Assembly: GCA_013824045.1 (NCBI GenBank)
Contig: PNND01000369.1
Coordinates: forward strand, 1-5,358
Direction of reading: 5' to 3'
DNA from: Rhodobacter sp.
GTDB taxonomy: Bacteria > Pseudomonadota > Alphaproteobacteria > Rhodobacterales > Rhodobacteraceae
DNA: 5,358 bases
Every line of letters begins with the position of its first letter. Within the stretch, counting starts at the first letter, position 1. Below, piece by piece: positions 1,961 to 3,754 of the stretch. The position numbers were made by a program, and so were the translations under genes. The notes under the pieces are model-generated. The model was not told the origin of the DNA, did not search any database, and worked only from the letters and a program-made list of their open reading frames with translations.

Positions 1961-2311
1961 TCAGGCCGATTTGCGGCGGAACAGCGACTGGGCCGTATAG
2001 ACCAGGATCGCCGCCCCGACTGCACCCATCACCGCCACACCCAGAAGGACGATCACATCAACCGGCCCGCCGATATCGCGAAAATGCGAACTGGTCACGG
2101 CCTGCACAAAGAGGACCGCCGCGACGGCGCCGATGGGCATGGAAAGCTGCGCCCAAAGGAACTTGCGCATCGACATCGCGCGGTCACGGATCAGGACGTA
2201 AAGATAGGCCGCCGTGACGACCAGCGCCGCCACAACCATGGCCCAGAACAGGCCGCGACCGAAAATCTCTTCGAAAACGGCGATCAGGGTTCCGACTGTC
2301 AGTTCCTTCAT
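1961..2311 (-). CDS. Small three-helix membrane protein (DUF5368-like), partner of the sulfide oxidoreductase
   Basis: The 116-aa protein has three predicted membrane helices: about 20-41 (LFWAMVVAALVVTAAYLY), 52-73 (MPIGAVAAVLFVQAV) and 82-107 (IVLLGVAVMGAVGAAILV). A basic loop RDRAMSMRK separates the first two and the tail is basic (FRRKSA). I recall such MKELTxGTLIAVFxEIFG proteins under the name DUF5368, of unknown function, in Rhodobacterales; that name is from memory. It has no cysteine and no haem or quinone motif I can name. It follows the oxidoreductase after 10 bases: AGGAGG (2322-2317) overlaps that gene's TGA and stands five bases before this ATG, so translation is coupled. Context suggests a membrane anchor, quinone-access or transport role tied to sulfide oxidation, but that is inference. 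Confidence 0.85.
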   Translation of the reverse strand: MKELTVGTLIAVFEEIFGRGLFWAMVVAALVVTAAYLYVLIRDRAMSMRKFLWAQLSMPIGAVAAVLFVQAVTSSHFRDIGGPVDVIVLLGVAVMGAVGAAILVYTAQSLFRRKSA

Positions 2312-2321
2312 GGCACCCTCC

Positions 2322-3665
2322 TCAGGCCTTGCCGCGCAGCATTGCGTTATAGGTGGCCTTCAGCGCCACTTCCTTCATCAGCCAGCTGATCCACAGCTCT
2401 TCCAGCGGCGCGATCATGCCGGGGAAGGAGGGGACGAGGTTGTTGTTATAGTCGAATTCAACCAGCATGGCGCGCCCCACCCGGGTGATCAGCGGGCAGG
2501 AGGTGTAGCCGTCATAGACCTCGGTCCCTTCGCGGCCCTCGATGGCGGCGATCAGGTGGTCCTCGACCACCGGCACCTGCCATTTCACCGATGCCGCCGT
2601 CTTGCCCTTGGGCACACCCGCGACATCGCCCAAGGCGAAGATCTCGGGGTAGCGCAGGTGGCGCAGGGTCTTCTGGTCGACCTCGACCCAGCCCTGATCC
2701 GTCCACTTGTCGGCCCAGGACAGGCCCGATTGGCGGATCACCTCGGGCGCGCGCTGGGGCGGGATGACGTGAAGGTAGTCATAGGGCATCTCGACTGTCG
2801 ATTTCACCTCGGCCTTGGTGGCGGCGTCGATCTCGGTCTTCTCGAAGGTCGCCCGCTTTTGTCCGGGTTCGATGGACAAGAGCTTGTGGCTCATGTGGGT
2901 CTGAATCCCGCGCTGGCCGAACAGCATTCGCACCTTTTCCGCCACGATGGGCACACCGAACAGGGCCGTCTGCGGGGCGGTATAATGCACCTCGAACTTG
3001 CCCGCGCCGACCGTGCGGCTGGCGATATCCTCGACCAAAAAGGCATGCTTGAGCGGCGCGCCTGCGCATTTCATCTCGGTCGCGGGGCGGGTCATCACGG
3101 CAACGCCGCCCTCTTCGGTGAACTGGCGCGCCGCATCCCACGTCTTTGCCGCATAGTCCGGCCCGGCGTAAAGCGCACCGATGCCATTCTGACCCACCAT
3201 ATCCAGCGAGAAGCCGGGGATGGCGTCATGGTCCAGCACAAGACCCGGGGCGACGATCAGGAAATCATAGGCGAGGCTTTGGCCACCGGTGGTTGCCACG
3301 GTCTTGGCGACGGGGTCGATGGCGGCGGCATTCTCGGCCACGAGGGTGATGCCTGAGGGCAGCCAGTCGGCGGTTTGCGACACGGTGTAAGAGGCGGGCT
3401 TCAGTCCCGCCGCCACAAGGCTGAGGCCGGGCTGATAAAAGTGTTCCGCCCGGGCATCGACGATGGTGATCTGCGCGCCATCCAGCCGCTCGACCAGACG
3501 GTTGACAAGCGCGGTCCCGCCAGCCCCTGCACCGATGATGACGATGCGGGCCTTGGTGGCGATGGCATTGGCGCGCACGGGCAAGCCAAGGCTGGCGGCA
3601 GCAAGGCCCGCAACGCCAAGGCCAAGAAAGGCTCGTCGAGATGTTGCAGGACCAGTCAGGCTCAT
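2322..3665 (-). CDS. Type II (mitochondrial-like) sulfide:quinone oxidoreductase with Tat signal peptide
   Basis: This 447-aa flavoprotein probably oxidises sulfide to sulfane sulfur and passes electrons to ubiquinone at the membrane. Residues 1-34 are a Tat signal: SRRAFLGLG with Arg10-Arg11, a hydrophobic stretch, and cleavage likely after ANA (34). The FAD fold begins with VIIGAGAGG (42-50, GxGxxG) and a strand ending at Asp70, followed by HFYQPGLSLV (75-84). KCAGAP contains Cys200 and YDGYTSCPL contains Cys390; both motifs resemble the active-site cysteines of human SQOR (Cys201, Cys379). I see no other cysteine. The second flavin motif is YPEIFALGDVAGVPKGKTAASV (Gly346-Asp347, Lys355-Thr356). 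The C-terminus (about 420-444) is amphipathic, as in monotopic SQRs. I chose the ATG at 3665 because GGAGGGAGGA precedes it and the Tat motif begins there; an upstream start at 3740 would swallow the operators. Flavocytochrome c sulfide dehydrogenase is the main alternative. Confidence 0.88.
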   Translation of the reverse strand: MSLTGPATSRRAFLGLGVAGLAAASLGLPVRANAIATKARIVIIGAGAGGTALVNRLVERLDGAQITIVDARAEHFYQPGLSLVAAGLKPASYTVSQTADWLPSGITLVAENAAAIDPVAKTVATTGGQSLAYDFLIVAPGLVLDHDAIPGFSLDMVGQNGIGALYAGPDYAAKTWDAARQFTEEGGVAVMTRPATEMKCAGAPLKHAFLVEDIASRTVGAGKFEVHYTAPQTALFGVPIVAEKVRMLFGQRGIQTHMSHKLLSIEPGQKRATFEKTEIDAATKAEVKSTVEMPYDYLHVIPPQRAPEVIRQSGLSWADKWTDQGWVEVDQKTLRHLRYPEIFALGDVAGVPKGKTAASVKWQVPVVEDHLIAAIEGREGTEVYDGYTSCPLITRVGRAMLVEFDYNNNLVPSFPGMIAPLEELWISWLMKEVALKATYNAMLRGKA

Positions 3666-3720
3666 GGGTTCCTCCCTCCGGAATATCCGGTATTTCTGCC
3701 ATATCTCTGGGGTGGGCATC

Positions 3721-3734
3721 TTGATCTGGATCAA
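3721..3734. promoter_or_regulatory. FNR-type (Crp/Fnr family) binding site
   Basis: TTGAT-CTGG-ATCAA is an exact match to the consensus TTGAT-N4-ATCAA bound by FNR, FnrL and related Crp/Fnr regulators. Its centre lies 62-63 bases upstream of the oxidoreductase ATG. If it activates in the usual -41.5 position, the start would fall near 3686, but no strong -10 is seen there. Relative to the candidate promoter at 3746-3775 the site lies just downstream of the start, which would favour repression. Confidence 0.75.
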
Positions 3735-3738
3735 ACAC

Positions 3739-3754
3739 ATTCCAGATTATGAAT
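3739..3754. promoter_or_regulatory. SqrR/BigR-type operator (ATTC-N8-GAAT)
   Basis: ATTC (3739-3742) and GAAT (3751-3754) are separated by exactly eight bases. I recall ATTC-N8-GAAT as the binding pattern of SqrR, the ArsR-family persulfide-sensing repressor of Rhodobacter capsulatus that controls sulfide genes. It stands upstream of a sulfide oxidoreductase gene and covers the candidate -10 and start site, a classic repressor position. Confidence 0.65.

What the first reader, a model, noticed from the sequence alone, without database searches (positions are those of the whole stretch)
3739..3754. Exact ATTC-N8-GAAT site placed over the -10 of a sulfide:quinone oxidoreductase operon
The site is seen directly, with exact halves and exact spacing. 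It covers CATAAT, the best -10 of the region, and lies just upstream of a gene that handles sulfide. I recall this pattern as the SqrR/BigR operator. This predicts repression until persulfide forms a disulfide or polysulfide link in the repressor. It ties a Tat-exported type II enzyme to a regulon described for a type I enzyme in Rhodobacter capsulatus.
Basis: partly seen in the sequence, partly recalled or inferred. Interest (0 to 1): 0.72.

Follow-up and report, generated by a model that had tools for sequence, protein, structure and literature searches.

The report
Oxygen-and-sulfide switch on sulfide oxidase
The DNA in front of a sulfide-oxidising enzyme gene carries two conserved sites four bases apart, one matching the published target of a persulfide-sensing repressor and one matching the target of oxygen-sensing activators, so the gene is predicted to switch on when oxygen is scarce and sulfide is present.

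Summary
The ATTC-N8-GAAT site is exact and correctly placed. Weak on its own, it recurs before orthologous genes: 15 of 97 upstream regions hold an exact copy, shuffles 0.47; no other spacing N4-N13 exceeds 1 of 98. The two elements recur together at preferred offsets: of 37 pairs, 16 (this one included) have the operator 19-21 bp upstream of the FNR centre. There a conserved extended -10 lies where an FNR box at -41.5 would place it, so the operator is predicted near -61, abutting the FNR box, not over the -10; CATAAT is poorly conserved. Half the orthologues (50 of 99) show neither element nearby. In this genome the other best operator matches lead an RND pump, a YgaP-like protein and a carboxymuconolactone-decarboxylase-family gene. 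Main weakness: neither an SqrR-type ArsR nor FnrL was found in this assembly (83% complete). Relatives have SqrR-like ArsR genes, one beside sqr. Binding and expression were not testable here.

The parts
3739..3754 (.). ATTC-N8-GAAT operator-type palindrome
   Evidence: exact match; conserved in orthologues; scores 29.4 with a matrix made from 25 orthologue sites, own site left out
3721..3734 (.). perfect FNR box TTGATCTGGATCAA (TTGATCCAGATCAA on the gene's strand)
   Evidence: conserved
3692..3701 (-). predicted extended -10 (TG at 3701-3700, CAnnnAT at 3698-3692), placed as for an FNR box at -41.5
   Evidence: column counts over 16 loci; own sequence
3686..3686 (-). predicted transcription start, 21 bases before the ATG
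   Evidence: inferred from the FNR box at -41.5; not mapped
3669..3679 (-). Shine-Dalgarno-like GGAGGGAGGAA
   Evidence: sequence
3746..3751 (-).
   Evidence: promoter-like; poorly conserved
2322..3665 (-). sqr: twin-arginine, SQOR-like sulfide:quinone oxidoreductase, 447 aa
   Evidence: 6mp5 E 8.8e-63 with KCAGAP and TSCPL aligned; Pyr_redox_2; best NCBIfam model is a type III one far below its cut-off (203.5 vs 525 bits); the label type II for SQOR is recalled
1961..2311 (-). DUF5368 gene, small hydrophobic protein, second gene of the likely operon
   Evidence: PF17336 E 1.8e-48; found in 99 of 100 related sqr loci

Best explanation
The site at 3739-3754 is a conserved operator-type sequence four bases from a perfect FNR box, and the two likely form a two-input promoter for the sqr-DUF5368 operon. 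Predicted working: when oxygen is low, an FnrL-type activator would bind 3721-3734 at about -41.5 and recruit RNA polymerase to an extended -10 at 3701-3692. Without sulfide, an ArsR-family persulfide sensor of the SqrR/BigR/YgaV type would sit on the adjoining operator at about -61 and block FNR or the polymerase alpha subunit. When persulfide bridges its two cysteines it would let go, so sqr would be expressed at low oxygen AND with sulfide. Shown: both sites, their conservation in part of the orthologues, and their preferred distances. Inferred: the identity of both proteins, the start site, repression, and the blocking mechanism.
For: Operator exact in 15 of 97 orthologue upstreams (shuffles 0.47, max 2) and FNR box exact in 18 (0.03, max 1); other spacings N4-N13 0 or 1 of 98, 47 other words at most 4. 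Core positions are more alike than the spacers and flanks. Preferred offsets; counting exact operators alone, which no matrix chose, 10 of the 15 loci also have an FNR box (up to one mismatch) and 9 of these 10 have an exact operator at -19/-20 or +40/+43. Extended -10 at the expected place. Four of 50 sqr loci without nearby elements have an FNR-operator pair further upstream. Regulon-like targets in this genome and an FNR-operator pair before a Blh-like dioxygenase operon. SqrR-type ArsR gene next to sqr in L074; operator-like sites enriched near ArsR starts. The motif is the one deduced for RcSqrR (PMC9774250).
Against: No SqrR-type ArsR and no FnrL found in this assembly. 50 of 99 orthologue upstreams have neither element and 7 have the FNR box only. 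The matrix was trained on 25 of the same upstreams, partly picked for their distance from the FNR box, so the counts are partly circular. The sister genome's ArsR gene has no operator of its own. A simple scan does find a sigma-70-like promoter with CATAAT. FnrL also represses genes (PMC4634722, passages). In R. [quoted passage not shown] Nothing was measured.
Confidence: 0.6

Rival explanations
1. One reading: an SqrR/BigR protein covers the -10 CATAAT and represses a promoter that answers to sulfide alone; the FNR box is irrelevant.
For: CATAAT is the only promoter-like hit; YgaV binds over the promoter of its own operon (PMC9774250, passages); in other orthologues the operator does lie over a -10 or start region.
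Against: Perfect, conserved FNR box; CATAAT poorly conserved; conserved extended -10 elsewhere.
Confidence: 0.12
2. The operator belongs to the same two-input promoter, but its protein helps activation (or acts both ways) from -61 instead of repressing.
For: The upstream place at about -61 is unusual for a repressor; YgaV acts as repressor and activator (PMC9774250, passage).
Against: In other orthologues the same motif lies about -20 or about -1, where repression is the simple reading.
Confidence: 0.12
3. FNR is the repressor here: it binds downstream of a start driven by CATAAT.
For: FnrL represses some genes (PMC4634722, passages); with CATAAT as -10 the FNR box would fall in the leader.
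Against: Conserved extended -10 at the class II distance from the FNR box; at other orthologues TATACA-like elements stand at that distance (my reading).
Confidence: 0.08
4. The site is a chance match or belongs to another palindrome family of this genome.
For: 35 exact sites in the genome, among them a family AAATTCNTTNNAANGAATTT.
Against: The window site scores 29.4, that family 12.8 or less; conservation.
Confidence: 0.04

Closest known systems
SqrR and its sqr target in Rhodobacter capsulatus
   Same: Recognition sequence ATTC-N8-GAAT (PMC9774250, passages); sqr is a target, cysteines C41 and C107 (PMC9995734, passages), 66 apart as in the ArsR proteins L074, L213, L088 and L105
   Different: The primary paper (Shimizu 2017) is not held.
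YgaV-ygaVP of Escherichia coli
   Same: SqrR-type ArsR with a similar site near its promoter and control of anaerobic respiratory genes (PMC9774250, passages); here a YgaP-like gene has a perfect ACATTC-N8-GAATGT site
   Different: In the passages seen, no operator-FNR pair at a fixed distance is described
BigR-Blh of Xylella and Agrobacterium
   Same: Persulfide or sulfide response under low oxygen (PMC5823870, passages); a Blh-like dioxygenase operon here has an FNR-operator pair
   Different: ArsR matches here stay below the BigR model's cut-off
FnrL regulon of Rhodobacter
   Same: Same box type (recognition sequences in PMC4634722, passages); ccoN has such a box here as well
   Different: The words sulfide and sqr do not occur in the main text of PMC4634722 or PMC4263372; supplements were not looked at

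Membership tests
SqrR/BigR-type operator | ATTC-N8-GAAT | tested here: met
   exact at 3739-3754; the consensus is from PMC9774250 passages
SqrR/BigR-type operator | conserved before orthologous genes | tested here: met
   15 exact of 97, shuffles 0.47; but 50 of 99 upstreams have neither element
SqrR/BigR-type operator | cognate ArsR with two cysteines in the same genome | tested here: not met
   not found in this 83%-complete assembly; found in relatives: 59 of 60 ArsR loci fetched have a cysteine pair by the pattern (a stricter, badly placed pattern counted 28 of 60)
SqrR/BigR-type operator | binding, and release by persulfide | not testable with these tools
   needs protein and DNA
FnrL/FNR class II promoter | TTGAT-N4-ATCAA | tested here: met
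   exact at 3721-3734
FnrL/FNR class II promoter | box centred at -41.5 | tested here: inconclusive
   extended -10 at the fitting place; start not mapped; the -41.5 rule is recalled
FnrL/FNR class II promoter | FnrL protein in the genome | tested here: not met
   CRP/FNR proteins found lack the FnrL cysteine set (recalled); a contig ends in the gene next to ccoN, where R. sphaeroides numbering puts fnrL next (PMC4634722 table)
Sulfide:quinone oxidoreductase, SQOR-like | flavoprotein homology and both catalytic cysteines | tested here: met
   6mp5 E 8.8e-63; both cysteine motifs in 100 of 100 loci
Sulfide:quinone oxidoreductase, SQOR-like | sulfide oxidation, quinone reduction, export by Tat | not testable with these tools
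   twin-arginine match in 100 of 100 loci, loose pattern

The most novel reading that the evidence does not exclude
A compound oxygen-and-sulfide promoter module accompanies sulfide-oxidation genes in Alphaproteobacteria: an FNR box and a persulfide operator held at preferred offsets (about -20, +22 and +42 bp, near two and four helical turns), so that one repressor can act from either side of the activator and make a low-oxygen-AND-sulfide gate, here by shutting FNR out of an abutting box.
Probability: 0.5. Interest if true: 0.65.

Novelty: new variant of a known kind. Interest (0 to 1): 0.5.

Why it matters
It would join two redox sensors, an oxygen-sensing FNR protein and a persulfide-sensing ArsR protein, at one promoter and explain how sulfide oxidation is confined to low-oxygen, sulfide-bearing conditions. 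The recurring geometry gives direct tests in cultured relatives. It also places an SqrR-type operator before a twin-arginine, SQOR-like enzyme whose gene sits with DUF5368 in 99 of 100 loci, a small membrane-type protein for which a full-text search found no paper.

Tried and rejected
Rejected: CATAAT as the working -10 (poorly conserved); chance origin; membership in the AAATTC...GAATTT palindrome family. ArsR-type proteins of the assembly as repressor: L016, L017 and L018 lack the cysteine pair; L019 (joined to a phosphatase-like domain) and L020 (a 432-aa open frame) were set aside on reading their sequences. Synteny of the sulfur-transport genes in this genome led to the dioxygenase operon, without an ArsR gene in the fetched stretch. 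PMC9143464 held none of the words sought. Paper searches for joint FNR and SqrR control: from the listings no title or abstract start describes it; the library is open-access only, and the 2017 SqrR and 2007 BigR papers are not held.

One search kept the best 80 of 385 relatives; one search found matches in 121 of 295 family genomes (none in the one other member of the genus) and I fetched 30 loci. One search used 16 loci (L049 in, L037 out); the 16 have L037 and not L049. One search covered 20 genomes that I chose, most of them bearing a box.

Full report
Observation. ATTCCAGATTATGAAT lies at 3739-3754 with exact halves. By itself it is weak: sites with up to one mismatch are expected 1.22 times in the window, and the genome has 35 exact copies. 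Four bases away, between it and the gene, lies TTGATCTGGATCAA (3721-3734), a perfect FNR box; even with one mismatch allowed 0.07 are expected in the window, and it is one of three exact copies in the 3.2-Mb assembly. On the gene's strand the order is operator, GTGT, FNR box, gene.

The gene. Window 2322-3665 (minus) encodes a 447-aa protein with a twin-arginine start. It matches mitochondrial sulfide:quinone oxidoreductase over residues 40-445 (6mp5, E 8.8e-63) with KCAGAP and TSCPL aligned. The best NCBIfam model (type III, selenoprotein subtype) is far below its cut-off; 'type II' rests on likeness to SQOR and recollection. Among 100 non-redundant related loci all have a twin-arginine match (loose pattern) and both cysteine motifs, and 99 have DUF5368 in the locus.

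Conservation. Of 97 orthologue upstream regions (220 bp), 15 have an exact operator and 29 one with up to one mismatch; shuffles give 0.47 (max 2) and 7.95 (max 14). For the FNR box the numbers are 18 and 38 against 0.03 (max 1) and 0.55 (max 3). Exact matches for the other spacings N4-N13 are 0 or 1 of 98, and for 47 other words at most 4. With a matrix made from 25 of these operators, 32 of 99 upstreams carry both elements, 10 the operator only, 7 the FNR box only and 50 neither. The operator count there is inflated by training; shuffled upstreams give 1.6 (max 5). Of the 50, four have an FNR-operator pair further upstream (L086, L088, L090, L126), against one pair in 377,820 bases downstream of the gene starts. 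That one precedes a gene that reads like a cytochrome c peroxidase (my reading of the translation).

Geometry. For each FNR box the best operator within 80 bp was taken: 37 pairs. The operator centre lies 19-21 bp upstream of the FNR centre in 16 (the window among them), 21-22 bp downstream in 7, 38-44 bp downstream in 9, and at +18, +33, +50, +50 and +53 in 5. This is partly circular, because some training sites were picked for their distance. Free of that, of the 15 loci with an exact operator 10 also have an FNR box with up to one mismatch, and 9 of these 10 have an exact operator at -19/-20 or +40/+43 (the tenth, L037, has its exact match at +51 and a one-mismatch one at -21). Counted from an FNR box at -41.5 (class II position, recalled), the three groups fall near -61, -20 and -1. 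In 16 loci of the first type, reading after the FNR box, T20 and G21 occur in 15 and 16, A24 in 15, A28 and T29 in 14 each: an extended -10 at the expected place without T at -7. Over 60% of -10 elements of R. sphaeroides and two other Alphaproteobacteria lack that T (PMC8407463, passages). In loci of the +38 to +44 type, TATACA-like elements stand at that place and the operator follows them (my reading). Core positions are more alike than spacers: FNR core 0.97 and 0.92, right half-site 1.0 and 0.88, left half-site 0.76 and 0.71, N8 0.41 and 0.54, upstream flank 0.32 and 0.35 (two sets of 8). The window thus belongs to an arrangement in which the operator abuts the FNR box and does not cover the conserved -10.

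Regulon in this genome. Scored with the matrix (own site left out), the 35 exact sites fall into four high ones (window 29.4; L009 29.4; L006 28.4; L156 26.2) and the rest (16.3 and below). L009 precedes an RND adaptor and pump, L006 a YgaP-like transmembrane protein, L156 a carboxymuconolactone-decarboxylase-family protein. The two sites that match ACATTC-N8-GAATGT in full are L006 and L009 (the window site has two mismatches to it). A weaker operator-like site (19.6) with an FNR-like box TTGACCTTGATCAA precedes an operon of a Blh-like dioxygenase (389 bits, cut-off 625), a Sulf_transp protein, DUF6691 and a TIGR01244 sulfur transferase. The other two exact FNR boxes lead a cytochrome oxidase subunit I fragment (L032) and ccoN with a divergent gene (L033).

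Regulators. No SqrR-type ArsR was found here: the HTH_5 search gave five matches and the BigR model three, best E 5e-10; L016-L018 lack the cysteine pair. No FnrL was recognised among the CRP/FNR matches. The contig with ccoN ends inside the divergent gene, which had no family match and which I call uspA-like only by its place; in R. sphaeroides ccoN, uspA and fnrL have consecutive locus numbers (PMC4634722 table). In relatives, 278 of 290 family genomes and 20 of 20 chosen sqr-bearing genomes have BigR-model matches, none over the curated cut-off; the model also rings in 14 of 14 control genomes, so the match alone is not specific. Of 60 fetched ArsR loci 59 have the cysteine pair. In Pseudotabrizicola sediminis (L074) such a gene precedes sqr on the same strand with the operator between them, and Blh-like and DUF6691 genes lie upstream. 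By matching contig lengths, in three Paracoccus genomes (L051, L054, L069) such a gene lies about 6-8 kb from sqr. The sister genome has a similar-looking ArsR (L213) without an operator of its own. The cysteines are 66 residues apart in L074, L213, L088 and L105, as C41 and C107 of RcSqrR (PMC9995734, passage). Operator-like sites (score 19 or more) are commoner near ArsR starts: 10 in 18,745 positions against 5 in 172,215, in 8 of 60 loci. The L074 ArsR matches HlyU, NolR, YgaV, the ArsR protein of 6o8k-6o8o (SqrR by recollection) and BigR in the PDB, so calling it SqrR would go too far.

Against. Half of the orthologues show neither element near the gene; a sigma-70-like hit with CATAAT exists; FnrL also represses genes (PMC4634722, passages); and in R. 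capsulatus added sulfide did not induce the sqr promoter anaerobically (PMC9995734, passage), which the low-oxygen-AND-sulfide logic would not predict for that organism.

Verdict. A conserved SqrR/BigR-type operator: very likely. A two-input promoter with an FNR-type activator: likely. Exclusion of FNR by the repressor, and the low-oxygen-AND-sulfide logic, are inferred.

Noticed in passing
L226 (G000:C40:11432-14788), 357-420 and 463-2803: FNR-like box and operator-like site (matrix 19.6) before an operon of Blh-like dioxygenase, Sulf_transp protein, DUF6691 and TIGR01244 sulfur transferase: a second candidate promoter of the same kind in this genome, with the operator downstream of the FNR box.
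   Followed up: partly
window 1961-2311; 99 of 100 related loci: DUF5368 accompanies this sqr gene almost always; a full-text search for DUF5368 found no paper. It may be a membrane partner of the exported enzyme.
   Followed up: partly
L001, L004, L012, L013, L015, L145, L159, L161 (own genome): A family of near-identical longer palindromes, AAATTCNTTNNAANGAATTT, usually with TTGCAA beside it, makes up at least 8 of the 35 exact ATTC-N8-GAAT sites and scores low with the sqr operator matrix; another regulator or a repeat.
   Followed up: no
L157 (G000:C262), 1503-1619: Three ATTC-N8-GAAT palindromes within about 120 bp, unlike the sqr operator; looks like a cluster of sites for another regulator.
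   Followed up: no
L124, 2042-2086: An FNR-operator pair (spacing 23) before a gene that reads like a cytochrome c peroxidase, downstream of sqr and DUF5368.
   Followed up: partly
window 3678-3690: Palindrome CCGGATATTCCGG around the predicted start and before the Shine-Dalgarno, reported by the scan as terminator-like on the plus strand.
   Followed up: no
family genomes: A second set of SQR-like matches at about 35-41% identity in longer open frames (often 560-600 codons) occurs in many family genomes; this assembly gave only the one match.
   Followed up: no
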